Assembly: GCF_029867415.1 (NCBI RefSeq)
Contig: NC_081183.1
Span: forward strand, 14,008,404 to 14,072,403
Source of the DNA: Vicia villosa
Taxonomy: Eukaryota > Streptophyta > Magnoliopsida > Fabales > Fabaceae
Length of the DNA stretch: 64,000 bases
Direction of reading: 5' to 3'
Positions 16,770-61,712 of the stretch are shown piece after piece (the stretch's first letter is position 1; each line of letters begins with the position of its first letter). A model generated the notes under the pieces. That model was given only the letters and a program-made list of their open reading frames with translations. It was not told the origin of the DNA and ran no database searches. Both the position numbers and the translations under genes were made by a program.

Positions 16770-16786
16770 AACTCTCCCCAACTTAG
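16770..16786 (-). promoter_or_regulatory. Ath-D polypurine tract
   Basis: On the minus strand it reads CTAAGTTGGGGAGAGTT, directly before the 3' LTR. Confidence 0.85.
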
Positions 16787-18510
16787 ACTTGTTTGTCCTC
16801 AAACAAGAAACAAACAAATCTCACTCAAAAGAAAGTTTGTCCTCAAACAAAACTAAACAACTCGAAATGACAAAAAGATCAATCAAAGAATCACGAAACG
16901 ACAAGTTTTAAAAAAGGAAACAAATGTATGGCTCAATCAAAAACGGTACACACAAAGTATACTACTTACCACTACTTTGATGATAACATAAAAACATGAA
17001 ACCAATGCTAAATACAAAATTTATGCCAAACATTCTAAAACAATGCAAGTTCACATATGAATCATACCTAGCAAAAAGAATCATCGGTAGATGAAAAACA
17101 CAAAATGAAGAATTTTCACTCGTCCAACAATCTTGCAAACAATAGACAAAATTATGCATTTATCTCAAAAATTCACATTAACACATGAAAACATAAATCA
17201 CAAGGGCTTTTCAAGGTTGTAATGCGGCTCGGTAAACAAACAAGTGATAAGTCCTAAAGCTAAATGAAACAAAAACTTGCCTAAAACTAAGGGAGTAATT
17301 ACTTCCACAAAGTTTCACACAATATAATTTAAATCACACTTCTTCATCATCACAAGTTTCACACCAAACACAAAACTTATTAGCACAATTTATTCCATAC
17401 TCTTTGTCTTACTATTTTTCAAAGCTTTTCCTCTTTTTTCTTTCTTTTTCTTTTTCTTTCTTTTTCTATTTTTCTCTTTCTTTATTTTTCTTTCTTTCTT
17501 TTTTTTCTTTTTCCTTTCCTCAACACATACTCAACCAACCAAACAAGCACATAATCAATGCTCTCCCCAACTTGAATTCAACCAACGTTATACAATGAAT
17601 ACTCCCACTTACTAAGGCAAGGTAAAAACTCATACAACAACAAAAGGTTGAGGGTTCAAGAAAAAACAACAATCAAAATCCACCAAAAAGCGAACTAATT
17701 CTCAAGTTCAAAAAGCGAAATGGATAATGACAAAAAGCTCAAAGGGGGTTAACAAAAGATCACACACTCACAAGGTGAAATGACAATATGGCTAAGGTAG
17801 TTGTGCTCAAAATCAAACAAAATGCCTTGATCATTTTCATGCTTTCACAAAGTCAATACAAACAAAAGATTAAACATAATAACATCTAGTTAAAACAAGA
17901 ATTATGGTCTCCCGCATATGTAAACAATGGAAAGCTTCCTCACAAAAAGGTTGGGAACTAAAGTGATTCACAAATGAACAAGTATATGAAAGAATGAATG
18001 GCATAAAAGTTGCAAAAAGCCTAAGTATCATGAATATGCTACAATCTAGAAAGCGATAAACACATACCTCGAACGTGTACAAAATGTTAAACTCTATCGT
18101 TACCATACATCCGCAAGTCGCAACGATCAAACTTGACAAATCACCAATTGCGACCTCAAGCTATCGAGCCAAACTTTGAACACAAACAATAAAAAACTAA
18201 AGAAAAATTATAAACAATTTACAAACGTTAGGGTGCCTCCCAACAAGCGCTTGTTTTACGTCGTTAGCTCGACGCCTGTTATTTAAGAACGTTCATTCAA
18301 GTTACTTCCGCCCGGCTATTCCTAACCACACACAAGCAAACGTGAAAGGAAAACAAACAATAATATAACAAATGTACAAGTATAGAAAACATGTGAAAGT
18401 ATAGTAAACATATACACAAATATAGATAAGTAAGAATATACAATATGTTCAATATATACAAAACTCCAAACCAAAGAAACTATTGCAATGCAAATTCAAT
18501 AAAACACCAA
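16787..18510 (-). other. Ath-D internal region, non-coding
   Basis: No gag, pol or env-position frame is found. A long pyrimidine tract (about 17421-17520) is purine-rich on the sense strand, as in its relatives. A GGTTGTAATGCGGCT phrase near 17215 matches a conserved 3' motif of Ath-A, B and C. Confidence 0.7.
18222..18274 (-). promoter_or_regulatory. Ath-D copy of the hairpin + 36 nt + GTAAA module
   Basis: On the minus strand CGTCG-AGCTAA-CGACG forms a hairpin (18274-18259). A 36-nt spacer containing AAGCGCTTGTTGGGAGGCA follows, then GTAAAT beginning at 18222. The module is kept although the element has no pol or env-position gene. Confidence 0.7.
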
Positions 18511-18528
18511 TCCCCGGCAACGACGCCA
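18511..18528 (-). promoter_or_regulatory. Ath-D primer-binding site, tRNA-Asp type
   Basis: On the minus strand it reads TGGCGTCGTTGCCGGGGA, one mismatch from the complement of the plant tRNA-Asp 3' end, three bases inside the LTR. Confidence 0.85.
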
Positions 18529-18531
18529 TTT

Positions 18532-42779: not shown

Positions 42780-43483
42780 CTGCACAGGGAAATAGAACAG
42801 CACCCAAACAAGCATTATACAATGATACATAATTAATTTTGCAAAAAAAAAAATTATTCTTTTCACAACACAGTCGCGGCTCGCGAGTCCATGGCGCGGC
42901 GCGACTGTGTGCGAACTTTGCTGCCCACCATGGTGGTGTAAAGGTTATCCACACGCAACTCATAAGATAGTTCCTGACATACTCATAGTGCTTCAGTTCT
43001 GTCTTCTAACCTAGGGTTTTGCATATTTTGGTCATTCAAGAGACTAGATCTAAAGACTAATGCTTAGGGTTTCAACACACCCCTCTTATGAAATTGAAAA
43101 GCAAAAGAGTAGATACGTACCTTGCGTGGTGATAGGAATGAGATGCAGATGAGGAGAATGAATGAAGTTTTTGAAAATTTTGGCTCGAGGCTCGCTGGAG
43201 AAGTGTGGCTGCTCGGTGGGGACAAACAATTGAAATGGGGTTTACTAAAACCCTATTTCTGAGTTTTAAAAAAAAACAAAAGACGCACTATCGCGCCTCG
43301 GGCTTTCTTGGCGAGACGCGCGAGACCCTTCAGTTTGGGTTCGCGCCGCGCTCTTTCAGTAGCGAGGCGCGCCAGTTTCCAAAAAATTTTTTTTGAAAAT
43401 TTTCTGTTTGTCCCCCCTCATTTTTGCCATAATAATCTGATGATCAAATTGTAAAAATTTCTGAAAAACTAAAATGCTCTTAC
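42780..43483 (-). other. Predicted 704-nt intron between pol remnant and env-position ORF (Ath-A)
   Basis: The donor-like site CGTG|GTAAGAG begins at 43483. The acceptor-like site TTTCCCTGTGCAG ends at 42780, directly before the ORF's ATG. Ath-B has the same donor position and the same TGTGCAG|ATG junction. GC-rich palindrome words (CGCGCC, GGCGCG, GGCTCG) cluster at 42868-42912 and 43290-43380 inside it, similar to those in the Ath-A LTR. Splicing itself is inferred. Confidence 0.55.
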
Positions 43484-43537
43484 CACGTTGGATTGCCTTC
43501 CAACAAGCGCTTTGTTTAACGTCGTTCAAGCTCGACG
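43483..43537 (-). promoter_or_regulatory. Ath-A copy of the hairpin + 36 nt + donor module
   Basis: On the minus strand CGTCG-AGCTTGAA-CGACG (43537-43520) is followed by 36 nt containing GTTAAACAAAGCGCTTG, then GTAAGAGC. The hairpin begins 10 nt after the stop codon of the integrase tail (43550-43548). Confidence 0.75.
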
Positions 43538-43547
43538 ATGCATGCTT

Positions 43548-43940
43548 TCAAAACTTGATGTGTGGTGTACTGTGCTCCACTCTCTCGAAGTAAGCTTTTA
43601 ACTTTTTCTCATTAACAGTCCTTCTTTCTGTTGTCTGTGGATTCTCTACTATAATGGTTCCGTGGTTGCATATCTCTTCTACTATAAATGGGTCAGACCA
43701 CTTTTGTGTTGCTTTACCTAGGAGATATCATGATTTCGAGTTGTATAAAAGCACCTTTTGTCCGACTTGATAGTTTCCAGGAGGTTGGATTTTATTTTCT
43801 TTGGTTGTTCCTGCAGTTGTATTGATTTGGAACACCTCACTCTTGTTCTTAAAAGGCTCCTTGGCTTTGAACAAAGTAAAGTTTATCTCTTCATTTTGCA
43901 CCCTGATTTTCATGATTCCACCATCCAGATCAATCATCAT
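43548..43940 (-). pseudogene. Ath-A protease end fused to integrase tail (pol deleted)
   Basis: The first part (MMIDLDGGIMKIRVQNEE) continues the protease region just after a TGA at 43943-43941. Then, within about 45 codons, the frame reads YQVGQKVLLYNSKS, which belongs to the far C-terminus of integrase. After a frame change, KATQKWSDPFIVEEI and PQTTERRTVNEKKLKAYF complete an integrase tail ending at 43548. Reverse transcriptase, RNase H and the integrase catalytic core are absent. Ath-B shows the full-length order for comparison. Either this copy lost pol or it belongs to a deleted, non-autonomous family. Confidence 0.75.
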
Positions 43941-45205
43941 TCAGGCCGTTTTCATGAATGGTCTTCCGAGAATCACTGGTACCTCATGATCTTCTTCCAT
44001 GTCCGCTACCACAAAGTCTACCGGAAAAAAGAATTTGTCCACTTTAACTAGCAGATCCTGAATCACTCCATAAGGGTGAGTGATGGACTTGTCGGCTAAT
44101 TGTAGTGTCATACTGGTGGGTTTTATTACCACGTTCCCTAGTTTCTTGACAATGGCTAACGGAATCAGATTTATGCTCGACCCCAGATCGATTAACCCAT
44201 CACCAGTGAAGTTTCTTCCAATTTTTAACGGCAAGGTTACTCGCCCTGGATCGGATTCCTTCCGTGGAGTAGTTCTCTGGATTATAGCACTGCATTGGGA
44301 ATCAAGCATCACAGTTGATTCATCCTTGCATCCCTTTTTCTTTGTGAGCATGTTCTTCATGAATTTAGCATATTTGGGCATTTGTTCTAATGCTTCGGCA
44401 AATGGTAGGTTTATGTGAAGTTGTTTGAAGATGCTCATAAACCTGGTATATTGTCTGGCGTGGTCCTTCTTTGATGGGGCATGAGGATATGGCAAATGTT
44501 GACTTGGTATTACGTTGCTTGCCATCTTTTCTCTAATGCTCTTTCTTTTCAGCTCATCTTTCTTTTTGACTTCTTTATTCACATTCTCTTCTTCAACATT
44601 AGTATCCATAATCTCACCTTCTTCATCTTTTTCATCATGTTTTTTAGCTTCCTCCGCATCATCTTCAACATTATTCTTTTCAACTTCGTTATTACTTCCT
44701 TGCTGCCCAGTCCTTGTCATCACTGCTTTGCAATGCTCTTTTGGATTCTCTTGAGTGTTGGCTGAGAATGTTGCGTTTGCTTGATTAGCTGCAAGTTGTT
44801 TAGCCAGTTGTCCCACTTGAGTTTCCAAACTTTTTATAGCTGCCTCTTGATTCTTGTGATTTGCCATTGCCACTTGTATGAACTGATTCATGGTCTCTTC
44901 CAACTTAGATTGTCCTCCTTGTTGTTGTGGCGACGGTTGAGTGTAAGGTTGAAAGGCTTGTTGTTGATATCCTTGATTCTGTGGCCTTTGTTGATAACCT
45001 TGATTGTTATTCCTTGGCGGATATCCTTGTTGATAAGGAGGATTCTGATATTGATTCTGCCTTTGTCCTTGATTATTATTCATGTAATTCACTTCTTCTT
45101 CCAACACTGGCGGGAAAAATCCTGTCTGATGCTCTCCTTTGCATAATTCACACTTCGCTACTTGGTAAGAATTAGAGACTCCATTCAGCTCCTTGAGTTG
45201 TTGTG
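43941..45205 (-). pseudogene. Ath-A gag C-terminal part and protease
   Basis: Reading begins at the left border of Ath-C and stays open to a TGA at 43943. Order: a knuckle-like CELCKGEHQTGFF (last cysteine replaced), a Q/N/Y/P-rich linker, LEETMNQFIQVAMANHKNQEA, an acidic-basic stretch, LPYPHAPSKKDHARQYTRF, and an aspartic protease with DLGSSINLIPL and VPVILGRPFM. DLG instead of DTG is common in this plant group, so it need not be a defect. The gene is the continuation of 50731-51059 and 62960-63613, separated by Ath-C and Ath-B. Before those insertions gag-protease appears to have been one open frame down to the TGA. Confidence 0.8.
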
Positions 45206-45210
45206 GTAAT

Positions 45211-46379
45211 TGTTAGGAGTGAATTAATGGTAAATTCATGTGTTAATATAAGTAATTTCTTTTCTAAATTAATGCAAATTGTGATAGATACATAGGTTTT
45301 TAGTAAGAATTGAACTGAATAAGTTTAGTTCATGTGCAAAGCAAATCGAATCACTTGTGGGTACTATTGATGCAGGTTTGGAGCTAAAGAGGAGTTTTAT
45401 AAGAACAAGAAGAGGAAAGAAAGCTAGAAGTCTCAAAGGCAAAGCAAAAAGAAGAAGTTTAACAAGGGCGCGCCGCGGGAGTTCTAGCCGGCGCCGCGAA
45501 AAAGTCTCTGTTTCTTACCTCGCCACGCTCATCCGATGCCGCGCCGCGGCCGCGACGTTTCAGGCCCAAAACTTATAAATAAAAGCCCTAGCTTCCAAGT
45601 AAAGGCAGATCTTTTGTGAGCGAAATTAGGAGAGCATTCTGAGTTTGAAGCCGAGAACACCAATCGAAGGCCAAATCTTTACCAATCGAAGACATTCTGT
45701 TGATGAAGATGAATCCCTCTATTAATTCTTGTGTGTTCTCCATGCCTATGGAGAGCTAAATTCCTCTTGTTGAGTTTGAGGTAGTAATTAACCTATGAAT
45801 ATACAATACCATTGATTCTTTCCTATGAACAATTGTTTGAATTTATTATCAATAAGAAACTTTGCTTTTATATTAAATTATTATGGAGTCTTTGATCAAA
45901 AGAAAAGATTCTAACTTTTGCCCTAGGTTACTATATTGATTCAATCTCAGTTCGCAGAGATGGAATTGTGATTGAGTTTTCATAATTATCGTTCCTTATT
46001 ACTATTATCGATATTGATATTTGGAGAGATCGAATCTCATACCGGTAAAAGTCTATCTAATTTGATTTGCAGACATGGAATCATATTTGAGGATAAGTGA
46101 AGATAGTAATTCAAATGATTGTTCAATTGTGAATTAATTGATAAATTGTATAGGAATAGGTTGACGAACCCTAAAGCTCAACATATTTCCTTAATCGTTA
46201 ACAAACGTTCAATATTTACATTTAAATTATTGTTTAAATTTGATAGTATTATAATCATAAAACAAATCCAATTACTTTTTCTCACTCAAAATAAATAACT
46301 ATAGAACGGCAGTGATATTAACCAATCCCTGTGGATACGATATATTACCGAAAATATTTACCCACAAATACTTTCAACA
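45211..46379 (+). repeat. Ath-C 5' LTR (1169 bp)
   Basis: It contains TATAAATA at 45574-45581, followed by AAAGCCCTAG, and a GC-rich island at 45469-45561 just upstream, with CGCGCC, CCGCGG and GCCGGCGCCG words. The island carries 21 bp absent from the 3' LTR. Confidence 0.9.
45469..45581 (+). promoter_or_regulatory. Ath-C promoter: GC palindrome island and TATA box
   Basis: The palindrome-rich island ends about 12 bp before TATAAATA. The same order (island, TATA, AAGCCCTAG) is seen in Ath-A. The 3' LTR copy has its TATA box at 49920-49927. Confidence 0.6.
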
Positions 46380-46382
46380 AAT

Positions 46383-46400
46383 TGGCGCTGTTGCCGGGGA
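46383..46400 (+). promoter_or_regulatory. Ath-C primer-binding site, tRNA-Asp type
   Basis: TGGCGCTGTTGCCGGGGA, one mismatch from the tRNA-Asp complement, three bases inside the LTR. Confidence 0.85.
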
Positions 46401-46704
46401 TTGGTGTCAATATTGCACGCATTGCAATAGTTTTTTATTTTGAGTTATTTCCTTATTTTTAGTTATATTATTTTTAGTTATTTACTTATTTTTAGATTTT
46501 TTGTTTAGTTACTTATTTTTATATTTTTTGTTTAGTTACTTAATTTTAGATTTTTATTTTTGTTCCTTTATTTTATATTTTTAGTTAGTTACTTTATTTT
46601 AGATTTTGTTATTGCAATAGTCTTTTAATTTTGATTTTTTTTATTATTATTTTTTTTCTTGTTATTTCACTTGTTGCTAGTTGTGTAGATTTGTGTTTGT
46701 CGAA
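46401..46704 (+). other. Ath-C leader, T-rich
   Basis: Non-coding leader with repeated TTTTTAGTTACTTATTTTTA-like words, about 300 nt. Confidence 0.6.
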
Positions 46705-47919
46705 ATGTTTGACCCAAATATAAATGTTGCGATTCATGCTCAAAACGAGATCCTAATTCAACAAATGGAGTATCTCCTTCGAAGTGTGTCACAGTTCACA
46801 CCTCAAGTTAATGAGTTTCATGATATCGGATGGTGCACACCGAAAGATGCGATGGAGTATCATATGGCTAACCATGAATACCAACAACAAGGGTTTTCAC
46901 ACTATAATCAAGGTTATCAAAGAGGACCCACTGAGTTAGAGGAAACCATGAATCAATTCATGCAATTCTCTTTAGCCATTCAACAAAACCGGGAAACGCA
47001 AGATGTTCAACTTACCAAATTCTTCACCGAGCAAAACGTAAGTCAAGTCTCAACTTTTCAAAACCCTATGACTTGTGTAGAAACCTGCAATGCTACTTCT
47101 ATAAGGAGTGTAAAAGTGATTGATGAGGAAGTTGAAAACAATGATGATGACAAGGAAGATGTTGCTGAAAAGGATAATATAGAGCATATAAACATCAAGA
47201 AAAATATAGAAAGTGAGTATGAGCCCTCAATGAAGCTACCTTATCCAAGACCTCCTAAAAAAATAGATGATGTGTTAGTCGAAGGAACAAAAAAGGAGGA
47301 TATAATCAAAGAAGTCATAAATGAGTTAGAAACTTCAAAAGTTGAAACTTTTTCAAAAGAGAATATGGTGGACTTAGAGTTGAAGAAGAGTAGTAATGCA
47401 AAGGAGCATAAACTCTCATTGGAATTACTTCCTATACAAGTTCCTAATAAAGAAGGGAATGAGAGTCATTACTTTCGGCCAATGAAAATGTTTAGCCGTT
47501 TGCAAATCACCATCCCATTCTTAGAAGGTTTAGAGTTGAAGAAGAGTAGTAATGCAAAGGAGCATAAACTCTCATTGGAATTACTTCCTATACAAGTTCC
47601 TAATAAAGAAGGGAATGAGAGTCATTACTTTCGGCCAATGAAAATGTTTAGCCGTTTGCAAATCACCATCCCATTCTTAGAAGGTTTAGAGTTTAAGCCA
47701 AAATTTGTCAAATTCATCAAGGATAGGTTCTCACCGATGAAGAAATTAACGGATAAGGAGGTTATCTCTCTTGAGGAGAGGAAAAAACAAATGAAGGAAG
47801 AGAGATCGCGAGTTGAAGTGGTAAGAATTAAGGATGAAGAAATCAAACAAGCAAACTTTAAATACTTTTGGGGTTTCACATTGGTAAGAAAAGTACCAAG
47901 GAAAAGAGACAATGGTTGA
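46705..47919 (+). CDS. Ath-C gag-linker ORF with internal duplication
   Basis: The first ATG is at 46705 (MFDPNINVAIHAQNE), giving about 404 codons. It lacks the gag capsid domain and zinc knuckle. What it keeps matches the region between gag and protease of Ath-A and Ath-B: TELEETMNQFMQFSLAIQQNRE, MKLPYPRPPKK, MFSRLQITIPFLEGLE and PKFVKFIKDRF. A 52-residue segment starting LELKKSSNAKEHKLS is present twice in tandem (47374-47529, 47530-47685), with identical DNA by eye. The rest is acidic and lysine-rich. It is open from start to stop despite LTR divergence near 1 percent. A structural or RNA-packaging role is possible but unproven; no enzyme domain is present. Confidence 0.7.
   Translation: MFDPNINVAIHAQNEILIQQMEYLLRSVSQFTPQVNEFHDIGWCTPKDAMEYHMANHEYQQQGFSHYNQGYQRGPTELEETMNQFMQFSLAIQQNRETQDVQLTKFFTEQNVSQVSTFQNPMTCVETCNATSIRSVKVIDEEVENNDDDKEDVAEKDNIEHINIKKNIESEYEPSMKLPYPRPPKKIDDVLVEGTKKEDIIKEVINELETSKVETFSKENMVDLELKKSSNAKEHKLSLELLPIQVPNKEGNESHYFRPMKMFSRLQITIPFLEGLELKKSSNAKEHKLSLELLPIQVPNKEGNESHYFRPMKMFSRLQITIPFLEGLEFKPKFVKFIKDRFSPMKKLTDKEVISLEERKKQMKEERSRVEVVRIKDEEIKQANFKYFWGFTLVRKVPRKRDNG
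47374..47685 (+). repeat. 156-bp tandem duplication in the Ath-C ORF
   Basis: Two adjacent 156-bp copies, in frame (52 codons) and identical as far as I can read. Only the base following the second copy's end departs from the pattern. Confidence 0.9.
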
Positions 47920-47935
47920 TGATTCAACCATGAAC

Positions 47936-47989
47936 CGTCAAGCCATGTGACGTTAAATGAGGCACTTCGTGGGAGGTAACCCACACTTC
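47936..47989 (+). promoter_or_regulatory. Ath-C copy of the hairpin + 36 nt module, donor lost
   Basis: CGTCA-AGCCATG-TGACG (47936-47952) starts 16 nt after the stop. The fifth stem pair is A:T where relatives have G:C, so pairing is preserved. The 36-nt spacer contains GGCACTTCGTGGGAGGTAAC. At the donor position (47989) the sequence is CTAATG rather than GTAAG. Confidence 0.7.
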
Positions 47990-49560
47990 TAATGTTTTAT
48001 TTTGTTTTGTTTATTTTTATTTCAGGAAATAATAAGGGGACCTTTCTGGTGAAAGCTAGGAAGAATCAATTGATATGGCAATACCCCTTGTGAGTCAACC
48101 CTCTCGGGCTTGTTCTGAAACATTGAGGTCAATGTTTAGTTCAAGTTTGGGGGTGGATTTACTCTTTTGCATTTTTCAATTTTATGCTTTTATGTTTGTT
48201 ATTTGTCCCCAGTTTAGAATGAGTAGTCCCACAGCATAATGAAAATCTCAAGCAAAGTACCAACAATGGAGCAACATGCGTGAAAGTGGTAGTGAGTGAA
48301 ATTTTTTGAAAAAAAAAAATTTTAAGTTTTCACTTTCTTTTTCAATAAGTGACAAGGCAGGTATGAATTTTCGAACTCAAACTCCTAATGTGTGCATGAA
48401 ACTTAGGTTGTTAGTAAATACTTGACAGAAGTTCTTTATGGTACACTACTTTTTGGATCGGCTTAGCCTTAACCATTGTGAGGAAAGATTTCCATTGTTT
48501 ACTATATGCAGGAGACCATCAATTATTTTGACATGTTTGTATTTTGCTAAACCAATTGTTGCATCGTTATGTGGAAATCTGTGAAAGGGATTTAGGCATT
48601 TGTTTGAATCTGAGAGTTTCTTTGAGCCGATTCCAGTATAAAACTTATTTTTTTATTCTGTGAGAGTGTGATCTTTTTGCTAACCATTCTTTGAGCCTGA
48701 GGTCAAGATAAGCATCATAATATGCACCAAGGAAAATACCTGGTGAGTTTTGATCTCAATAAAAAGTTTTGTTTTGGACCATCAACCATAAAATTTGGTG
48801 ATGTGTTTTCTCTTTGACCTTTTTAGAAAGTAGGGGAGCATTCATATAATCTAAATACAGGTTGATCTCCAAGTTGGGGAGAGTCACTTTCAAAAGAAGA
48901 GTAAGTACATGTGGTAATTTGTGAAGGATAAAAGAAATTCGTAGCTTGAAAATAATAATAATAATAATAATAATAATAAGAGTTATGGAAAAAGAACAAC
49001 GTTTGAATCTAAACAGTTATTGAAAAAAAAAAGAGAGAAAAAGAAAAACTGAGCTACGAATGAGAAAAGATGACCAGGTGAGAAAGCGAAAGTTATAGAG
49101 AAGGAGGAATGAGTTATGATTCGGATGCTTCCCTAGATTAGGAACAACCCTTGATTATCTTCTTTTCTTTGAATCTAAACCACATTACAACCCTAGAAAG
49201 ATCTTCTGATTCTCAGATTCCACAGGACTTGATGCTAACAATTTGGTGAACGTATGATATGTATCCTTGTTGATTTAATTGTTTGGATGAGTGTTGAACC
49301 CCTCTGTTGTTCATCATACTTTTTGATGAGAGTGATTAGTGCTGATTCAATTACAATTGTGTAATGTTTTGAACTTCTGGAGGTAATTTGCTTTCAAAAT
49401 CTGTTTCATGTGTATGTTCTGAGTTTGCAGGAAGAGGAGGAGTATTTGACTTGGTTACTGAATTGAACCACTTGAAAAAAAACCTGTTTGAAAAACTTGT
49501 TGCATGACTGTCGGTATTTTTGTTAGAGGTAAGTAATTTTGTTTAGGGACAAACAAAACT
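47990..49560 (+). other. Ath-C 3' region, non-coding
   Basis: No env-position ORF. It matches the Ath-A 3' region in reverse complement. An acceptor-like TTTATTTCAG ends near 48025, too close to the module for a normal plant intron. An (AAT)n tract lies at about 48950-48979. Confidence 0.65.
48937..49061 (+). other. Conserved hairpin around a purine tract (Ath-C)
   Basis: ATTCGTAGCT (from 48937) pairs with AGCTACGAAT (to 49061) around a purine-rich loop holding the (AAT)n tract. It has the same 10-bp stem as Ath-A at 13160-13258. Confidence 0.65.
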
Positions 49561-49577
49561 CTAAGTTGGGGAGAGTT
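49561..49577 (+). promoter_or_regulatory. Ath-C polypurine tract
   Basis: CTAAGTTGGGGAGAGTT abuts the 3' LTR. Confidence 0.85.
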
Positions 49578-50725
49578 TGTTAGGAGTGAATTAATGGTAA
49601 ATTCATGTGTTAATATAAGTAATTTCTTTTCTAAATTAATGCAAATTGTGATAGATCCATAGGTTTTTAGTAAGAATTGAACTGAATAAGTTTAGTTCAT
49701 GTGCAAAGCAAATCGAATCACTTGTGGGTACTATTGATGCAGGTTTGGAGCTAAAGAGGAGTTTTATAAGAACAAGAAGAGGAAAGAAAGCTGGAAGTCT
49801 CAAAGGCAAAGCAAAAAGAAGAAGTTTAACAAGGGCGCGCCGCGGGAGTTCTAGCCGGCGCCGCGAAAAAGTCTCTGTTTCTTACCGCGCCGCGGCCGCG
49901 ACGTTTCAGGCCCAAAACTTATAAATAAAAGCCCTAGCTTCCAAGTAAAGGCAGATCTTTTGTGAGCGAAATTTGGAGAGCATTCTGATTTTGAAGCCGA
50001 GAACACCAATCGAAGGCCAAATCTTTACCAATCGAAGACATTCTGTTGATGAAGATGAATCCCTCTATTAATTCTTGTGTGTTCTCCATGCCTATGGAGA
50101 GCTAAATTCCTCTTGTTGAGTTTGAGGTAGTAATTAACCTATGAATATACAATACCATTGATTCTTTCCTATGAACAATTGTTTGAATTTATTATTAATA
50201 AGAAACTTTGCTTTTATATTAAATTATTGTGGAGTCTTTGATCGAAAGAAAAGATTCTAACTTTTGCCCTAGGTTACTATATTGATTCAATCTCAATTCG
50301 CAGAGATGGAATTGTGATTGAGTTTTCATAATTACCGTTCCTTATTACTATTATCGATATTGATATTTGGAGAGATCGAATCTCATACCGGTAAAAGTCT
50401 ATCTAATTTGATTTGCAGACATGGAATCATATTTGAGGATAAGTGACGATAGTAATTCAAATGATTGTTCAATTGTGAATTAATTGATAAATTGTATAGG
50501 AATAGGTTGATGAACCCTAAAGCTCAACATATTTCCTTAATCGTTAACAAACGATCATTATTTACATTTAAATTATTGTTTAAATTTGATAGTATTATAA
50601 TCATAAAACAAATCCAATTACTTTTTCTCACTCAAAATAAATAACTATAGAACGGCAGTGATATTAACCAATCCCTGTGGATACGATATATTACCGAAAA
50701 TATTTACCCACAAATACTTTCAACG
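49578..50725 (+). repeat. Ath-C 3' LTR (1148 bp)
   Basis: Partner of 45211-46379, shorter by a 21-bp indel in the GC-rich island. Confidence 0.9.
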
Positions 50726-50730
50726 GTAAT

Positions 50731-51059
50731 TTAGACATTTGTTGTGTCAAAAGTTCCACTTGTGATGTGAGTAACTTATTTTGGGCCAACAGAGCATCAC
50801 TGTTATTCAATTCCAGAATTCCGGCTTTCTTCTCTCTGACAGTGCGATCATGATTCCCTTGACGATCATTCAGAGCCATTCGCTCTATTATCTGAGTAGC
50901 TTCAGCAGGTGTCTTGGACATAAGTGAACCACCAGCTGTGGCATCCAAGAGTGTCTTGTTTGTAGCTGTGAGACCATTACGGAACATGTGGATTTGATCA
51001 ACTTCCGCAAAACCGTGTCCTTTGAACTTTCTCAACATAGCTTTATACCTTTCCCATGC
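50731..51059 (-). pseudogene. Ath-A gag, middle fragment
   Basis: This piece lies between Ath-C and Ath-B. It encodes the end of the gag domain: MLRKFKGHGFAEVDQIHMF, LLDATAGGSLMSKTPAEA, MALNDRQGNHDRTVREKK and LLAQNKLLTSQVELLTQQM. Each phrase has a close match in Ath-B gag. Its frame agrees with the fragments on either side once each 5-bp target duplication is counted once. Confidence 0.82.
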
Positions 51060-52301
51060 TGTTAGAAAGTATAGGATAAATATTTCTAGTATCGTCTCCT
51101 CAGGGATTGATGCGATATTATCGCCGTTCTACAGCTTAGTATACTTTGAGTTAAGATTCGGGATGTTTTTAGTGTCATGAAAGATAAATAGCATGAAAAG
51201 AAAGTAACGACAAGAATTTAGGATTTAAAAACGGTTTGGTAAAACTATGTCAAGATTAGTTTTCGTTAGCTTGCTTTTGTATATACTCTGATGATCATGT
51301 ATATGAACATATCAATGATTAATACAATCACGTATCCTCTCGATACTGTTTATCTCTAAAGCAGTGTCGTGATTGTTATTATATTAACCGTCAGATGATC
51401 TCTCATGCCGACAGTTGACATAATAACCTTTAAAGTTTGATACAAGTGATTATCAACTCACAAATCTATCTCTAGAGTTTGATTGTTGATAGATGAATAC
51501 CCTTTTGGTTAAGATTTGAAACATATCTCTCAATAGTGTATCAAAACAACATATAAACATGAATACAAAGATATTCACCATATATTAATCACCAACAAGG
51601 TTCATATACAAAAGATCAAGCTAAATAAATACTCTACAAGCTAACTACCTCTAATCTTGACACATGAGGAGTTTAGCTATCCATAGCTTCAACAACAAAC
51701 ATCAACACAAGACCTCCTAGCATAGAAATTCAAAGATGATGAAGAAAAATGCTTGAGAAATCTTGAAGATTTATGATTTATTCTCTCCTCTTCCCTTGCC
51801 CTAGAGTGTATGGTTGGTAATAATGAAAAGAACAAGATAAGGATCCTCCAAAATATCTCTAAGTGCCTAAAAGTAGTCACTTGAAAAAGTACCGCCGCTT
51901 AGCGCCCAGACTGCCGCTAAGCGGAGCACCAAAAATATCTGCTTCCACGCTGGAGACCGCTAAGCGGGCTAAGGCCGCTAAGCGGGACTTGCTGAGCACA
52001 AATTTTCCTCTCGCCCCTGGAAAGCGCACTTAGTGGCCGCTGAGCGGCCCTTGCTGAACCAAACTTCTTCATTAAGCCTCCAAACTTGCTCCAAATTGCA
52101 TCCTTACCTCCTATTACTTGCCAAAATGCATAGAACCTACAAAAAACATAAGAAAAGCTTAAAAAATACTATACTTACTACTAAACTCGATTTTATTTAT
52201 TTACACTATTACGAACCGAAATTAAATAGAAAAGTAATGAGAAAAGTTATCGAAATACCACAAAAGTTTATCAACAAATATCCACATTTTGGATTCTAAC
52301 A
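51060..52301 (-). repeat. Ath-B 3' LTR (1242 bp)
   Basis: Left LTR of the minus-strand element, from TGTTAGAA to TTCTAACA. Confidence 0.95.
51893..52050. repeat. CCGCTAAGCGG palindrome island in the Ath-B 3' LTR
   Basis: Five copies or variants of the 11-nt interrupted palindrome CCGCT-A/T-AGCGG lie within 160 bp (for example 51913-51924, 51974-51986, 52035-52049). The same words recur in the 5' LTR (62546-62703) and in the env intron (55358-55390, 55943-55974). Confidence 0.85.
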
Positions 52302-52316
52302 ACTCTCCCCAACTTT
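52302..52316 (-). promoter_or_regulatory. Ath-B polypurine tract
   Basis: On the minus strand it reads AAAGTTGGGGAGAGT, abutting the 3' LTR. Confidence 0.88.
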
Positions 52317-54011
52317 GACCTTTGTTTGTCCTCAAACAAGAACAACTCAACAAGCACAAACAAAATAGTATTTACAAGGTTAGCAACATAAAGAGAATGG
52401 TTCAAACTTGACTTACATGCATGCTCCATAACCATCCCTTGCTTGTACAAGATTAAAACATGAATATGAGCTAGGTTCTAAATACAAACACTTCACCACA
52501 CTTGCATTTATCAAAATGATGTTCAAACTTGAATCACCTACAATCAACTTCAAAAATGAAGGACAAAGTGCTATAATCATGTTAGCACAAGGGACTTATC
52601 ACTCTCCCTAGCAATTATGCACATTCAAGACAATTCATACATTCATCTAACTAAGTAACAAAAGTGATAGAAACAAAGATCACGAGGGCTTTTTCGGTTG
52701 TAACTTGGCTTGGTTCCAAACAAGTGTCATTTCTACATGGCCAATGAATCAAAAAGGGACAATTGCATGAAGAGCATTTATTGAATCACACTATTTACAC
52801 AAACATTCTTATTTCTCCCTTTTGACTTTACAACACTACAATGCATTCTTTCTTTTATCTTTGATTTTACATCTCATTGAACTTTTTCTTTTCTTTTTCA
52901 TATTATTCTTTTTCTTTTTGAATGCATTGTTCTATTATACCACCATTTCCTTTCTTTCTTTTTCTCAAGTAAACTCCTCTCTCCCCAACTTTGAACAATT
53001 CAACAATTCAACACAATTATGCTCTTCATTTAAGGTTTAAGTGTAATTGGGTTAAGTGTCTACCAAAGAAAATATTTTCCAAGTGAGTCAAAAGTTTTCT
53101 TTATTTGCTTTTCTTCAACAAACTTAATAAGGGAATACTTACTAGCTTGTCGGTTCTCATTCGACTCACTTGGCAACATCAAAATTTAAGGCTCAAAATT
53201 GGTTTCAATTGATCACACTCTCACATGTGGCCTTTTGGAAGGTGGTTTTTCTCGTATTACACAAAAAATTGCCTCGATAACTTCTAAACACTTTAAACAA
53301 AGCAGATTAAGCATGAATCGTCCCAGTTAACACCAATTGCTAGCACACACAAAAGTTTCTATTACACAATGGAAAGTCCTCTCACTTATGTAGTTATGTC
53401 CTAACTTGATTCAAATATGAACAAAATCTTTCAAATGCAAAATGATGACAAGTTTTTGTATAAAGCACCTAAATCATATTCACACTAATATCTACAAAGC
53501 AAGAAAATCGTTACCTTAGCATGCACCGCATCAAGAGCATTATCATCACCATCCAACTTTGATGTTACCACTCTTTGATGAGACTTTGCTTGCTTGAGTT
53601 TTTTTTCTATTCATCACAAGGACAAACAACAAAAAAATTTCTTATACTTACTAATATTATGTTCAAACATAATTACTACTATTATATTATTAGTACTATT
53701 ATAATATTACTAGCACTACTTATTATATTTACTATAACTATATTATATAACTACACAAACTTAACACTATAACAAAAACACAAAATATAACACACACCTA
53801 ATATGATATAATATATTAGAGACAACTTGCCAATGGCAAATGCCTCAAAGATGTCTTAGTAGCACCATTTTCTACTTCATTACAACAAAACAAAACACAT
53901 CCCTAAGGATGGTAACAAAATAATCCAACAACTAACTATTCAACACAAAATTAAAGTACTAGTAAACAAACACAATAAAACATAACAACATCACCAAAAA
54001 GGTATGTATCA
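52317..54011 (-). other. Ath-B 3' untranslated region
   Basis: No gene. It contains a pyrimidine tract on the plus strand (about 52850-52975), an AT trinucleotide-rich patch (about 53665-53760) and the conserved GGTTGTAACTTGGCT phrase near 52699. Confidence 0.7.
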
Positions 54012-55214
54012 TCACTCATCACCATCCTCCTCTTCTTCGTGATTTCCTTCATCACCTTCTTCTTCATTAGCTCCTCCCCCATTCCTAAAGAATGGCCTAT
54101 CCTCCGGATAGTTACAAATGGCCTCATACTGCTCATTTGTAGTAAAAGATGTCACACTGGAAGGATCGCTCATCTTCAGGTACAAGCGGTGCAAAGAGTC
54201 GTGAATGGTAGCCTCCGACCTGCGCAAAGCATCCATATAATCCCAACTATACCTGCAAGCCATTTGCTGATTATACCTTGCTTGGCCGGCAGGAGGAGCT
54301 ACTGCTTCAGGTTGTGGTTGAAAACGACCCCTTCCCCGTGGAGAACAAAACCGAGCAACATAACTCTCATCCACCTTGCTAGTAATAGCCATCTGAACCT
54401 CATCTGGAATCTCCACCCTAGCCCTCCTGCACAATCCCATAATCAAAGCAGGATAAGGGAGTTGACCAGAAAGTCGACTCCCTAAAGGGTGCCCACTAGA
54501 AGCCACCTCTCGCATCTCCTCAGAAATAATCTGAGCAATGTCAATCTCTATACCTGTCATCATAGCAAATAACAAACAGGAGTTAGCTAAAGTGAGATCA
54601 CTGTTGTGGCTCTTCGGCTTCAAGTTGTTCAGAAGCAAGGTAAGGTAGAGTTGAGCCATCTGATTCATGTTCCCTCGGTCCATCTTCACTGGTATGCCAA
54701 ATGGGTTAAGAGAAAAACCACGACTCTCAAAAGAAAGAGCCTCTGCTACTTCATCCATATTGCACTGCTTTGCTCTATGTATCCTTGCATACTCACACCC
54801 ATTTTCAGGAAAAGCCATTGGATCACCAAGGTAAGAACTAATAGCAGCCCGATTGAATGAAATGGCTCTCCCCCTCACAACTGTTTTGCGCACATACTTC
54901 GTATCTTCCGTTGGCATCGCCTTCGCATAAAATTCCCTCATAATATCCACATTGATACGAGTACTCGGCTGCAAAAGAACATCCCACCTACGATTGTGCA
55001 TGTTTTCCACAAATTGCCTATAATCCCCATTAGGCTTGAGGTCAAAGATTTTCTCCGGTAAAATTTTTCTTCCGCACAACCGTCCAAACCACTCTTGATG
55101 CTCAGCACTCAAAAACCTTGCATTGTCAAATTGGGGTGCTTCGAGAACGGGAGCTTGTCCAGAACTAGAGCCTGGGAATCGTCCTCTTTTGCTTCGGCTT
55201 TGGCGAGAAGTCAT
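54012..55214 (-). CDS. Ath-B env-position ORF (400 codons, intact)
   Basis: The ATG at 55214 (MTSRQSRSKRGRFPG) directly follows the acceptor-like TGTGCAG. I prefer it to the upstream ATG at 55274, which lies in the predicted intron. The frame is uninterrupted. A basic N-terminus leads into a conserved region (ILPEKIFDLKPNGDY, NVDIMREFYAKAM, VRGRAISFNRAAIS, LPYPALIMGLCRRA) shared with Ath-A, and the C-terminus is very acidic (NEEEGDEGNHEEEEDGDE). This matches the family named putative plant transposon protein. Its place after integrase is that of env-like genes in Athila relatives, but I see no signal peptide or clear transmembrane helix. Function unknown. Confidence 0.8.
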   Translation of the reverse strand: MTSRQSRSKRGRFPGSSSGQAPVLEAPQFDNARFLSAEHQEWFGRLCGRKILPEKIFDLKPNGDYRQFVENMHNRRWDVLLQPSTRINVDIMREFYAKAMPTEDTKYVRKTVVRGRAISFNRAAISSYLGDPMAFPENGCEYARIHRAKQCNMDEVAEALSFESRGFSLNPFGIPVKMDRGNMNQMAQLYLTLLLNNLKPKSHNSDLTLANSCLLFAMMTGIEIDIAQIISEEMREVASSGHPLGSRLSGQLPYPALIMGLCRRARVEIPDEVQMAITSKVDESYVARFCSPRGRGRFQPQPEAVAPPAGQARYNQQMACRYSWDYMDALRRSEATIHDSLHRLYLKMSDPSSVTSFTTNEQYEAICNYPEDRPFFRNGGGANEEEGDEGNHEEEEDGDE

Positions 55215-56080
55215 CTGCACATTACAACAAAAAGCACACCACACTGTTAAACACATAATATTGCAGTTAAACATAGCTAACTAATGGTGTTGGACCAACT
55301 TTGAATGCCTGAACCACACACAACAGAAACAGAAAAAAATTTCTGTCATCAGCATCTGCCGCTTAGCGGGGTTATGGCCGCTTAGCGGCCCTGCGATTTC
55401 TCAGAAAAATTCTGCAGAAATGCAGTCTGCTAAAACTTGCTAACTCCTACACTTTCTTCACTCCTTCTGCATCAAATATGGCAACCAGTGATGAATGCAA
55501 TACTAACTCTGCTCCTAATCACTAAACTAACCTAATTTACACAAACTAGGGTTCTTAATACCCATTCCAGAAATCAATTCACAAAAACAACAACCTAATC
55601 ACAATCTAAACCTAAAATCTTTATATATGAACAATTCTAAACATTACCTACTACTACTATCGATTTACACAAACTTTTTCAAAGAAAATAAACAAACATT
55701 TACCTTGCAAACACAAATGAAAAAGAGAATTGATGGAGATGAGTTGAACACAATAAATTCCTTCCAGAAATGGATGCAAAGATTGAATGAGGAAAAGAGG
55801 GAACTTGGAACACTTGAAAATTTGGGGAAAAATGAGGTGGCTAGGGTTTCTGGCCGCTCAGCCCCTCATAACTTGTTTCTCTTATTACCTGGGCCGGGTC
55901 AGACCCTCTGGCCCACTAAATTTTTTTTCTGCATTTTTGTTTGGCCGCTTAGCGGCGTGATGGCCGCTTAGCGGTATCAGTAAAATTCTGTTTTCTGCAG
56001 AATTCACAGCAGTTCCCCAAGCCCCGATTTTTCCCGACTTTCCTAACAGTCACAACACACACAAAGCATAAAATACTTAC
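55215..56080 (-). other. Predicted 866-nt intron between integrase and env-position ORF (Ath-B)
   Basis: Donor CATT|GTAAGTAT begins at 56080. Acceptor TTTTTGTTGTAATGTGCAG ends at 55215, next to the ATG. Both positions match Ath-A. CCGCTTAGCGG palindromes lie inside at 55358-55390 and 55943-55974. Confidence 0.6.
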
Positions 56081-56133
56081 AATGTTGGGGTGCCTCCCAA
56101 CTAGCGCTTTGTTTAACGTCGGTTAGCTCGACG
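56080..56133 (-). promoter_or_regulatory. Ath-B copy of the hairpin + 36 nt + donor module
   Basis: On the minus strand CGTCG-AGCTAAC-CGACG (56133-56117) begins 13 nt after the integrase stop. The 36-nt spacer contains GTTAAACAAAGCGCTAG and ends at GTAAGTAT. Confidence 0.78.
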
Positions 56134-56146
56134 GTCCGAGGCGGCT

Positions 56147-57454
56147 TTACGGATCAAAAATCGGAACAGCTTCCGAACTTCGATCGACTTCACCACCAAG
56201 ATACGGCTTGAGTCTTTGACCATTCACAGTCCAACTTTCATTTGTTGTCGGATTTTCAAGCACAACCGCTCCATAGTCTTTTACTTCCTTGATTCGGAAC
56301 GGACCCGACCACTTCGACTTTAATTTGCCCGAAAACAACTTCAACCTTGAATTAAACAATAGAACCATTTGACCTTCTTTGAACTCCTTCTCCACAATCT
56401 TTTTATCATGATACCCCTTCACTTTCTCCTTGTAGATTTTGTTGGATTCATAGGCTTGTAATCGCAATTCTTCCATTTCAAGCAATTGCAATCTTCTCAT
56501 TTCACCACTTGTCTTAGGATCAAAGTTAAGCAACTTCAAGGCCCAAAATGCCTTATGCTCCAATTCCACAGGTAAATGACAACTCTTCCCGTAAACCATT
56601 TGAAATGGAGTAAAACCAATCGGTGCCTTGTATGCCGTACGGTAAGCCCATAAAGCATCATCCAACTTTTGTGACCAATCCTTTCTTGACGAAGAAACTG
56701 TTTTTTCCAAGATTCTTTTAATTTCTCGGTTGGAAACTTCGGCTTGACCATTAGCTTGTGGATGATAAGCCGTTGTTACCTTGTGCTTCACACCATATTG
56801 TTGTAAGACTTTTTCAAGTTGTGTGTTGCAAAAATGTGAGCCACCATCACTAATGAGAATCCTTGGTGTTCCAAACCTTGTAAAAATGTTTTTCTTCAAG
56901 AACTTGATTACGGTCTTTCCATCCGCCTTTGGACATGCTATTGCTTCTACCCACTTTGAAACATAATCAACCGCAACCAAAATATACTCACAACCAAAAG
57001 ACGAAGGAAATGGTCCTACAAAGTCTATTCCCCAACAATCGAACACTTCCACTTCTAACATGTTGGTCAATGGCATTTCATTCCTTTTGCTCACTCCACC
57101 ACTTCTTTGACAATTGTCACAACTTTGTGCATGCAAGTAGGCATCTTTGAATAACGTAGGCCAATAGAACCCGGATTGAAGAACTTTTGCCGCCGTTCTT
57201 TGTCCACCATAGAGTCCACCATAAGGTGAGTTATGACAATGCCACAAGATTCTCATTGCTTCTTCCCTTGTCACACATCTCCTTAACACACCATCCACCC
57301 CAATTTTGAACAAGTATGGATCATCCCACACATAGAATTTGGCATCATGAAGGAACTTCTTTGTTGCACTTTTACTCCAATCTTCCGGCATCCAACCCGA
57401 TGCCTTGTGATTAGCCATGTCAGCAAACCACGGCCTTTCTTCCACCATGAACAA
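56147..57454 (-). pseudogene. Ath-B integrase segment
   Basis: The frame is continuous with the RNase H segment except for a TAG at 57457-57455. The zinc-binding part has H72/H74 and the CDNC pair (C112, C115). The usual second histidine position (GGHxGG) reads GGLYGG, so one zinc ligand appears lost. The catalytic core is present: D144 in [11 protein letters not shown]203 in ISDGGSHF and E239 in [12 protein letters not shown]. The C-terminal tail ([20 protein letters not shown]) matches the remnant in Ath-A. It inserts cDNA into chromosomes. With the upstream stop and histidine loss this copy is unlikely to be active. Residue numbers count from the first codon after the stop. Confidence 0.88.
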
Positions 57455-58123
57455 CTATTCATCCGGGAATGATTCCAAAACCTCTTCTTCTTTGTTTGTT
57501 ACCTCTTCATTCACCAACCTTGACAAATGATCCGCCACCAAGTTTTCCGCTCCTTTCTTGTCTCTAATCCCTAAGTGAAATTCTTGTAGCAACAATATCC
57601 ACCTGATGAGCCTTTGTTTTGAATCCGGCTTGGTAAGCAAATACTTTATCGCTGCATGGTCAGTGTAAACAACAACTTTCGAACCAATTAGATAGGACCT
57701 AAATTTTTCTAATGCATATACAATAGCTAGTAGTTCTTTTTCAGTTGTTGCATAATTAACTTGTGCCTCATTAAGAACCTTACTAGCATAATGTATAGCA
57801 TGAAAAAATTTTCCTTTCCTTTGACCCAACACCGCTCCTACCGCATAATCACTAGCGTCACACATTAGTTCAAAGTCAAGTTTCCAATCGGGCGCTATGA
57901 TTATGGGTGCGGTAGTCAATCTTTGTTTCAATTCATTAAAAGCTAAAAGGCATGCATTATCAAAAACAAAAGACTTATCTTTGTTGAGCAAGTTGCTCAA
58001 AGGCTTTGCAATCTTTGAAAAGTCCTTAATAAATCTTCTATAGAATCCCGCATGGCCTAAGAAGCTTCGAATTCCTTTGACATTTGTTGGCGGTGGCAAC
58101 TTCTCAATAACCTCCACTTTTGC
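57455..58123 (-). pseudogene. Ath-B RNase H segment (with RT thumb/connection)
   Basis: The frame opens after a TGA at 58126-58124. It contains the connection sequence [19 protein letters not shown], then RNase H with [42 protein letters not shown] and [10 protein letters not shown], carrying the acidic catalytic residues in order. It degrades the RNA strand of the RNA:DNA hybrid. It ends at a TAG (57457-57455) in frame with integrase. Confidence 0.88.
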
Positions 58124-58167
58124 TCAGTCGACTTCAATTCCTTTGGAAGAAACTTTGTGACCAAGAA

Positions 58168-61100: not shown

Positions 61101-61578
61101 GGTCTATATACCAATCCTTTGCTTTGCCGATCAAGGAGTGAGGGAATAATCTCTTAAACACCTGCTCTTCCTCTCTTTCAGGGGCTCCGACTGCTCCAGC
61201 AATTTCATAAAACTTTGTCAAGTGTGTATATGGGTCCTCATGATCAAGTCCTGCAAAGGGACTAGCATAAAGTAGCTGAAGAATGCCAGTCTTCATTTCA
61301 GAATTTCTTGCATTGTTGTCATTTCGTGCAAACTGGGCTGCTCTTCTCGGACTGTTAGCACATGGTGCTCTAGGTGGTGGTGGTGGTGGGTCCTGTTCTC
61401 CATGCCCTGCCATCTCTTCTTCTATAACTTGTGGTGCTGATGAAGTAGTAGCTTCTTGGGCTAATCTTCGTTCTTTGGCTAGTTTCCTTCTTCTCCTGGT
61501 TTTACTGTTCAATCTCCTTGCGGTTCTTTCAATTTCTGGATCAAAAAGAAGCTGATCTGCTGGTACACTCCCACGCAT
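58168..61578 (-). pseudogene. Ath-B gag-protease-reverse transcriptase, frameshifted in RT
   Basis: I take the ATG at 61578 (MRGSVPADQLLFDPEIE), which aligns with Ath-A gag; the frame is open from 61614. Numbered from 61614, the gag domain covers about residues 105-285, a short knuckle CELCSGDHPTGYC 347-359, a Q/Y-rich linker 365-425, and an acidic-basic stretch 495-560. Protease has DTGSS at 669-673 and ILGRPF at 741-746. Reverse transcriptase starts near 930, with FLDGYSGYNQI and the FMDDF catalytic motif at 1108-1112. About 20 residues later, near 58224, the frame shifts and ends at 58168. Sequence on both sides suggests a small deletion between short GTTGAAA repeats. Gag and protease products could still be made. 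Confidence 0.9.
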
Positions 61579-61691
61579 AAACCAGAGCTGAAACACTAAC
61601 CAAAAAGTGAGCACAGACTAGGCAATAATACTAATATTTATACTCAAAACACACAAAAACTATTGCTATGCTTATAATATCTTAACGCCAA

Positions 61692-61709
61692 TCCCCGGCA
61701 ACGGCGCCA
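61692..61709 (-). promoter_or_regulatory. Ath-B primer-binding site, tRNA-Asp type
   Basis: On the minus strand it reads TGGCGCCGTTGCCGGGGA, a full 18-nt match to the plant tRNA-Asp complement, three bases inside the LTR. Confidence 0.92.
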
Positions 61710-61712
61710 TTT

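What the first reader, a model, noticed from the sequence alone, without database searches (positions are those of the whole stretch)
43483..56133. A post-stop hairpin with exactly 36 nt to a splice donor, shared by four Athila-type elements
In Ath-A (43537-43483), Ath-B (56133-56080), Ath-C (47936-47989) and Ath-D (18274-18222) a 5-bp hairpin whose loop begins AGC is followed by a gapless 36-nt spacer. The hairpin lies 10, 13 and 16 nt after the last stop codon in A, B and C. Three elements have stem CGTCG/CGACG; Ath-C has CGTCA/TGACG, a compensatory change that keeps pairing. The spacer shares GTTAAA, a GCGCTT-like core and GGGAGGYA. Position 37 is GTAAGA in A, GTAAGT in B, GTAAAT in D and CTAATG in C. 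Retention in Ath-D, which has no genes, points to a cis function such as splicing control, RNA packaging or translation coupling.
Basis: partly seen in the sequence, partly recalled or inferred. Interest (0 to 1): 0.88.

Follow-up and report, generated by a model that had tools for sequence, protein, structure and literature searches.

The report
Twin-hairpin RNA tag of Athila retroelements
A short, predicted-to-fold RNA element recurs thousands of times in one 2-Gb genome, presumably a plant's, at the end of the coding part of Athila-type jumping elements, and a family without genes keeps it too; it is likely the tag that gets their RNA packaged for copying, and where an envelope-like gene follows it directly abuts the inferred splice site of that gene.

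Summary
The four-copy observation holds. In the window's own 2.03-Gb genome a stem-blind pattern finds 4,890 copies (reversed control 2) and a D-type pattern 1,346 (control 0). Among 14 families from the first 86 copies read, hairpin 2 uses all four Watson-Crick pairs at its first position; 83 of 84 pairs stand (0 of 20,000 shuffles). A linker/loop contact also covaries, suggesting a compact pseudoknot. Hairpin 1 barely varies; its change in Ath-C is better read as CpG decay. The spacer is 35-36 nt, not strictly fixed.

Position 37 is very probably a 5' splice site in env-bearing families: five genomic copies (four families) run straight from position 36 into the env start, lacking the GT...AG stretch of their relatives. 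A GT 2-3 nt past hairpin 2 occurs in 13 of 13 copies with env and 2 of 33 without.

Copies without env or pol, and a gene-less family, keep the hairpins, mostly without that donor. The likeliest primary role is a cis signal on genomic RNA: packaging first, export or stability second. No experiment tests this.

The parts
43520..43537 (-). Ath-A hairpin 1 (CGTCG/CGACG, loop AGCTTGAA)
43487..43504 (-). Ath-A hairpin 2 (GTTGGA/TCCAAC, loop AGGCAA); predicted linker contact at 43506-43508
42780..43483 (-). Ath-A inferred env intron, GTAAGA...TGTGCAG, 704 nt; env-like ATG at 42779
   Evidence: L029 lacks this stretch
56117..56133 (-). Ath-B hairpin 1 (loop AGCTAAC)
56084..56101 (-). Ath-B hairpin 2 (GTTGGG/CCCAAC, loop AGGCAC); predicted linker contact at 56103-56105
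55215..56080 (-). Ath-B predicted env intron, GTAAGT...GTGCAG, 866 nt; env-like ATG at 55214
   Evidence: by analogy with intron-less copies; none of the 4 hits is B-type
54012..55214 (-). Ath-B env-like ORF (Pfam Transposase_32) from the ATG after the acceptor
56147..57454 (-). Ath-B integrase end of pol, stopping 13 nt before hairpin 1
47936..47952 (+). Ath-C hairpin 1 (CGTCA/TGACG, loop AGCCATG)
   Evidence: not in the minimum-energy fold
47968..47985 (+). Ath-C hairpin 2 (5 bp GTGGG/CCCAC, outer C-A mismatch, loop AGGTAA); predicted linker contact at 47964-47966
47989..48024 (+). Ath-C, no donor: CTAAT, T-rich stretch, TTTCAG (acceptor-like)
18259..18274 (-). Ath-D hairpin 1 (loop AGCTAA)
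18227..18244 (-). Ath-D hairpin 2 (GTTGGG/CCTAAC, one G-U, loop AGGCAC)
18458..18528 (-). Ath-D PBS/leader block shared with A, B and C
16770..16806 (-). Ath-D PPT/3' LTR junction block shared with A, B and C

Best explanation
It is a 52-54-nt RNA element of Athila-type LTR retrotransposons, made of one nearly invariant and one covarying predicted hairpin, that likely works as a cis-acting recognition signal on the genomic RNA, most probably for packaging by Gag. Shown by sequence: it lies 13 nt after the pol stop in Ath-B; hairpin 2 covaries across families; copies without pol or env and a gene-less family keep it; at the sensitivity used, gene-less D and A share only the PBS block, this element and the PPT junction. 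Inferred: in env-bearing families the genomic RNA is spliced from the GT just after hairpin 2 to the AG just before the env ATG. Because the element lies upstream of the donor it stays in the spliced RNA, which would explain why spliced RNAs were also copied into DNA. Predicted: the linker GCU/ACU pairs with the hairpin-2 loop AGGC/AGGU, giving a compact pseudoknot. Untested: that Gag, or any protein, binds it.
For: Copy number with controls. Hairpin 2: 83 of 84 standard pairs in 14 families, pair 1 as CG 6, GC 4, AT 2, TA 2, shuffles 0 of 20,000, motif columns 0.89-0.99 identical against 0.47 and 0.55 in the flanks; the 9 donor-less families alone show pair 1 as CG 6, TA 2, AT 1; 18-row alignment 98.2% paired, covariation score 0.261 against 0.089 shuffled and at most 0.076 slid. 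Linker/loop contact GC 63, AT 20, GT 1, AC 1 of 85. Gene-free retention: D against A only PBS, motif, PPT; D against B these plus one weak block; 8 of 8 D-type copies read have a PBS 351-500 nt upstream and no gag/protease, RT, RNase H, integrase or env match; 20 of 31 donor-less, env-less copies have gag/protease matches within the 600 nt read upstream. Spliced-looking copies: L029, LTRs 99.0% identical, GTGAG on both flanks; L031-L034. Palindrome AGCGCT between the hairpins in 64 of 85.
Against: No binding or packaging data. The element is not confined to unspliced RNA, unlike a classical psi, and lies far from the 5' end in full-length elements. D against C: the motif did not reach the threshold while several 3' blocks did. 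Hairpin-2 pair 1 is unpaired in 11 of 70 copies without GT at 37 (0 of 15 with it). With the 15 distinct arm pairs instead of families, 84 of 90 cells are paired and 1 of 20,000 shuffles does as well. In the mutual-information scan, three column pairs that are not base pairs rank just below the linker/loop contact (0.303, 0.271 and 0.244 against 0.333). Folding energies are unremarkable (z -0.6 to -2.1), and in C hairpin 1 is not in the minimum-energy fold. The palindrome is broken in the GCACTT copies and in C. Conservation could equally serve export or stability.
Confidence: 0.45

Rival explanations
1. RNA stability or nuclear export element: placed just after the pol (or gag/protease) stop, it would protect the long-3'UTR genomic RNA from nonsense-mediated decay or export it unspliced, like the Rous sarcoma virus stability element or the MPMV constitutive transport element (both recalled).
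For: Hairpin 1 follows the end of the integrase-tail match by 12-48 nt in the copies where one was found and the reading-frame end by 10, 13, 16 nt in A, B, C. Kept without env. P0013 carries an integrase-like tail just upstream of the motif (my reading).
Against: Gene-less D-type copies keep it although no known element gene lies before it.
Confidence: 0.25
2. Splicing control: hairpin 2, ending 2-4 nt before the donor, tunes access to the 5' splice site so that enough genomic RNA stays unspliced while some env RNA is made.
For: Five intron-less copies; GT within 2-3 nt of hairpin 2 in 13 of 13 env copies against 2 of 33 others.
Against: 31 of 46 copies have neither donor nor env, and donor-less families still show paired changes in hairpin 2, so splicing control cannot be the only reason for conservation. 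By a recalled weight matrix the donor ranks 2 of 40 GTs in A, 6 of 77 in B and 51 of 153 in D; stronger ones lie nearer env in A (43120) and B (55703, 55888).
Confidence: 0.15
3. Translation coupling: after splicing, hairpin 2 would end 3 nt before the env ATG with the pol stop about 60-70 nt upstream, so the element could drive reinitiation or internal entry at env.
For: In L031-L034 the ATG directly follows position 36, and integrase sequence is kept upstream as far as read.
Against: Env-less and gene-less copies keep the element.
Confidence: 0.1
4. Mere shared descent of young copies without RNA function.
For: Many copies per family; related sequences inflate shuffle statistics; families were split by ungapped flank identity, which can part relatives that differ by indels.
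Against: Flanks of the 14 families are under 70% identical by that measure while the motif stays 0.89-0.99 identical and changes in paired fashion.
Confidence: 0.05

Closest known systems
Athila/Calypso lineage (Wright and Voytas 2002, seen only as a reference; passages of PMC1142308, PMC7264820, PMC6317226)
   Same: gag-PR-RT-RH-INT and an env-like ORF after pol; a passage of PMC2829016 says splice acceptor sites were predicted for BAGY2 and Athila env-like RNAs, one of PMC7264820 that splicing was reported for barley Bagy2.
   Different: The passages that I saw name no hairpin, covarying RNA element or fixed donor at the pol end.
Retroviral packaging signals (recalled)
   Same: Short paired hairpins with a palindrome near a 5' splice site; kept by defective elements that need packaging in trans.
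   Different: At the 3' end of pol in full-length elements and upstream of the donor, so present in spliced RNA too.
BARE2, parasitic on BARE1 (PMC3735527, passages)
   Same: Element that cannot make Gag but whose RNA is packaged; the passage calls this consistent with conserved dimerization and packaging signals.
   Different: Ty1/copia (recalled); our element is Ty3/gypsy and lies at the pol end.
RSV stability element, MPMV CTE (recalled); foamy-virus pol elements (PMC5294762, search listing with start of abstract)
   Same: cis RNA elements at gag, env or pol ends that act on stability, export, packaging or env splicing.
   Different: No sequence relation tested; Rfam finds nothing at gathering score in the window.

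Membership tests
Athila lineage (Ty3/gypsy) | gag-PR-RT-RH-INT in that order | tested here: met
   Ath-B: Retrotrans_gag, Asp_protease_2, RVT_1, RT_RNaseH, rve in order
Athila lineage (Ty3/gypsy) | sense env-like ORF between pol and 3' LTR | tested here: met
   PF20167 Transposase_32 ORFs in A (split over two frames) and B; no ORF of 150 aa or more in that place in C or D
Athila lineage (Ty3/gypsy) | RT/RH/INT phylogenetic placement | not tested
env intron | GT donor and AG acceptor removed exactly | tested here: met
   five genomic intron-less copies; GT-AG ends seen in intron-bearing relatives of three of the four families
env intron | spliced RNA detected | not testable with these tools
Retroviral packaging signal | present only in unspliced RNA | tested here: not met
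   element lies upstream of the donor and is present in the five intron-less copies
Retroviral packaging signal | retained by defective elements that would need packaging in trans | tested here: met
Retroviral packaging signal | bound by Gag and needed for packaging | not testable with these tools
   needs experiment
Known Rfam family | match at or above gathering score | tested here: not met
   0 in window; only permissive match to the Ath-B element SAM_alpha 14.6 bits, gathering 36, E 0.17, taken as chance

The most novel reading that the evidence does not exclude
A new class of retroelement RNA element: a compact pseudoknot that is at once the packaging handle of a plant retrovirus-like lineage and the structured edge of its env 5' splice site, and portable enough that gene-less parasites with over a thousand copies keep little besides it, the PBS and the PPT.
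Probability: 0.3. Interest if true: 0.85.

Novelty: new variant of a known kind. Interest (0 to 1): 0.72.

Why it matters
How plant retrovirus-like elements mark their RNA, and how they express env, is little known (recalled). This gives a short target with covariation, a splice junction to look for in RNA-seq, and gene-less families that point to a minimal cis set. It could also help annotate env-less and gene-less Athila derivatives.

Tried and rejected
Pseudoknot between the hairpin-1 loop (GCY) and the linker (RGC): it looked compensatory in the window's four copies but its third pair is C-A in 55 of 84 genomic copies; rejected. A count with mis-registered columns was discarded. A wrong reading frame for A in alignment A2 was redone in A3. 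The RT_B query was out of frame by my error; RT and RNase H were searched again in frame in the D-type copies, D, A and C, not in the 46 copies. L124 is a chance pattern match and was dropped (85 of 86); L103 lacks the AGC anchor (84 for hairpin 1 and the families). L004 looked like a second splice form but is an ordinary deletion. P0017 and P0018 carry the Pfam PF03091 label (CutA, recalled) and are taken as chance hits. SAM riboswitch hit rejected. Viral and GTDB contig collections gave no relative; could not match D-type spacing, could; stretches matched a peptide pattern and none was confirmed. A paper search by motif letters gave 68 papers; in the 20 listed only the 10-base term matched and the titles are unrelated. 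Papers PMC155253 and PMC311225 are not held, so what they say on Athila4 and BAGY-2 splicing was not read.

Limits: the 86 copies are the first 86 listed of 4,890, all on one contig of one genome; copies within families are not independent; env absence means no tblastn match to the window's two env-like proteins within about 1.5-2.6 kb; the 2-3 nt window for the donor was set after seeing the five exceptions; the structure was derived from these sequences, which favours it over slid versions; splice-site weights are recalled. Copies outside this genome rest on peptide reading frames only.
Full report
What is there. The four intervals were read directly. Hairpin 1 and the 36-nt distance are as described, with one caveat: Ath-D reaches 36 by losing a base in the linker and gaining one after hairpin 2. 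A pattern for the core, with up to three mismatches, finds these four places and no other in the window, mean 0.00 in shuffles. Folding energy itself is unremarkable (z -0.6, -0.6, -0.7 and -2.1).

The elements. Self-comparison shows a nest, as I read it. Ath-A runs from 11476 to beyond 64000 on the minus strand and is interrupted by a large element (about 13477-41216), by Ath-C (45210-50724, plus strand, LTRs 97.1%) and by Ath-B (51054-62954, minus, LTRs 98.9%). Ath-D (15475-19827, minus, LTRs 97.4%) sits in an LTR of the large element. B carries gag, protease, RT, RNase H and integrase domains and an env-like ORF of Pfam Transposase_32 type. A has gag/protease and an integrase tail close together, with no RT or RNase H match in the stretch between, and an env-like ORF split over two frames. 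C has a 412-aa ORF without a Pfam match that resembles the gag-to-protease part of B. D matches none of gag/protease, RT, RNase H or integrase.

Copies in the genome. The window's assembly (G000, 2.03 Gb, 1,888 contigs, unnamed) could be searched. A narrow pattern gives 534 matches, reversed control 0. A pattern that leaves every hairpin-2 stem base open gives 4,890, reversed control 2. A D-type pattern, also stem-blind, gives 1,346, control 0. The tool calls such counts lower bounds. I read the first 86 places listed (L001-L006 and L055-L134); one is a chance match, leaving 85.

Structure. In those 85 copies hairpin-2 pair 1 is CG 31, TA 18, GC 14, AT 9, TG 2, with CA 10 and AG 1 unpaired; pair 2 is GC 57, TA 21, GT 5, TG 1, AC 1; pair 3 TA 82, CG 2, TG 1. 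All 11 unpaired cells of pair 1 lie among the 70 copies without GT at 37. Over the 15 distinct arm pairs, 84 of 90 cells are standard, and 1 of 20,000 shuffles does as well. Reduced to 14 families whose flanks are under 70% identical on both sides (ungapped), 83 of 84 cells are standard pairs, against a shuffle mean of 67.3 and maximum of 81 in 20,000. The commonest base averages 0.99 in the hairpin-1 5' arm and 0.89 from its 3' arm to position 36, against 0.47 upstream and 0.55 downstream. An 18-row alignment (16 distinct) gives a covariation score of 0.261 against 0.089 shuffled and at most 0.076 when partners are slid. A mutual-information scan that knew nothing of the structure ranks hairpin-2 pairs 1 and 2 first and second, and third a contact between the linker (position 11) and the hairpin-2 loop (position 24): GC 63, AT 20, GT 1, AC 1 of 85. 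The next three ranks are not base pairs, so family background is not far below. With its neighbours the contact predicts three pairs, GCU/ACU with AGGC/AGGU, that is, a compact H-type pseudoknot. The A-T state may trace to few events. Hairpin 1 barely varies, so covariation neither supports nor refutes it here.

The donor. Locus L023/L029 gave the key. It is an A-family element with LTRs 99.0% identical and the five bases GTGAG on both sides. It aligns to Ath-A down to 43484 (91.2%) and continues at 42780 (87.3%), the two matches sharing one G: the GTAAGA...TGTGCAG stretch is missing, and the env-like frame starts there (its ATG reads AAG). An A-type junction search with up to 3 mismatches finds this one place, control 0. 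A search for hairpin-2 end plus three bases plus ATG found four more (L031-L034), reversed control 0; all four run on into env-like sequence, with stops early in L032. Relatives that keep the intron show GTAAGT or GTAAGA after hairpin 2 and TGCAG or TACAG before the same ATG (L035, L051, L002, L047; L040). L032 matches intron-bearing L040, and L033 matches L051 and L035, on both sides of the junction; for L031 and L034, which are near-identical, only upstream relatives were found to match well. So this is five loci in four families. Integrase sequence is kept upstream in L031-L034 as far as read, and gag/protease in L029. I infer splicing from position 37 to the env ATG; no RNA reads were available. 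A generic weight matrix (recalled values) does not single this donor out.

Donor and env. In the 46 copies with at least 1.5 kb read downstream, GT at position 37 and an env match go together in 8, neither in 31, GT alone in 2 (L064, L092), env alone in 5 (Fisher 1.7e-4). Those five are the ATTGGG family, whose GTAAAT or GTATAT lies one base earlier. Counting a GT 2-3 nt past hairpin 2, a rule set after seeing them, the table is 13, 2, 0, 31 (Fisher 1e-9 by copies, not corrected for family). Of 61 copies without a donor, 55 instead have a pyrimidine-rich stretch ending in YAG within 65 nt, as Ath-C does; the same test 300-1500 nt further downstream gives 21 of 155. Its use is unknown.

What it is for. 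The donor comes and goes, but the hairpins stay. Of the 31 copies with neither donor nor env, 20 have gag/protease matches within the 600 nt read upstream (two of these also an integrase tail), 4 an integrase tail only and 7 neither. Ath-D against Ath-A shares, at the sensitivity used, only the PBS block, this element and the PPT/LTR junction; against Ath-B these plus one weak block; against Ath-C the PBS, the PPT and other 3' blocks, but the motif itself did not reach the threshold. Eight of eight D-type copies read have the PBS 351-500 nt upstream and no gag/protease, RT, RNase H, integrase or env match. A gene-less family that keeps the PBS, this element and the PPT points to a cis role on the RNA that is copied. 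Packaging by a partner's Gag is the simplest such role; export or stability comes next. Because the element is upstream of the donor, spliced RNA would keep it, which fits the copies that lack the intron. None of this is tested by experiment.

Outside this genome. Sixteen short predicted proteins from metagenome-type sources (P0001-P0016) contain, by my reading, the element in frame (DVKQALVGR and variants); three of them had E above 1. P0013 carries an integrase-like tail just before it. At residue level 13 of 16 are compatible with pair 2 of hairpin 2 (V/N, V/Y, A/S, V/S; S read as AGY) and 3 are not (V/I). IMG/VR and GTDB gave nothing.

Prior knowledge. In the listings of my paper searches and in passages of PMC1142308, PMC2829016, PMC7264820, PMC11963269, PMC3735527, PMC6317226 and PMC11410651 I saw no description of this element. 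The two primary papers on Athila4/Calypso and BAGY-2 splicing are not held, so a prior mention of the env donor there cannot be excluded.

Noticed in passing
47989-48024 (Ath-C) and donor-less copies among L055-L134: Copies without donor often carry CTAAT/TTAAT, a T-rich stretch and TTTCAG|GAAATAA after hairpin 2: 55 of 61 have a pyrimidine-rich YAG within 65 nt, against 21 of 155 further downstream. Looks like a 3' splice site whose donor partner is unknown.
   Followed up: partly
43941-45212 and 43550-43640; L002, L029, L042, L043, L047: The A family has gag/protease directly followed by an integrase tail, yet keeps an env-like ORF: a pol-deleted family that still carries env.
   Followed up: partly
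46681-47919: Ath-C encodes a 412-aa protein resembling the gag-to-protease part of B, with a 156-nt (52-codon) tandem duplication (47374-47541 / 47530-47697).
   Followed up: partly
G000:C1:151439869-151459251 and C1:57302403-57316327, 70397071-70407638: Motif copies at even spacings of about 3.2-3.5 kb, suggesting tandem arrays of these elements.
   Followed up: no
43120 and 55703: AAG|GTACGT and AAG|GTAAAT, the top-ranked donor-like sites between motif and env in A and B, perhaps an alternative 5' exon for env.
   Followed up: no
26680-29400: Long array of a 47-nt tandem repeat inside the large element.
   Followed up: no
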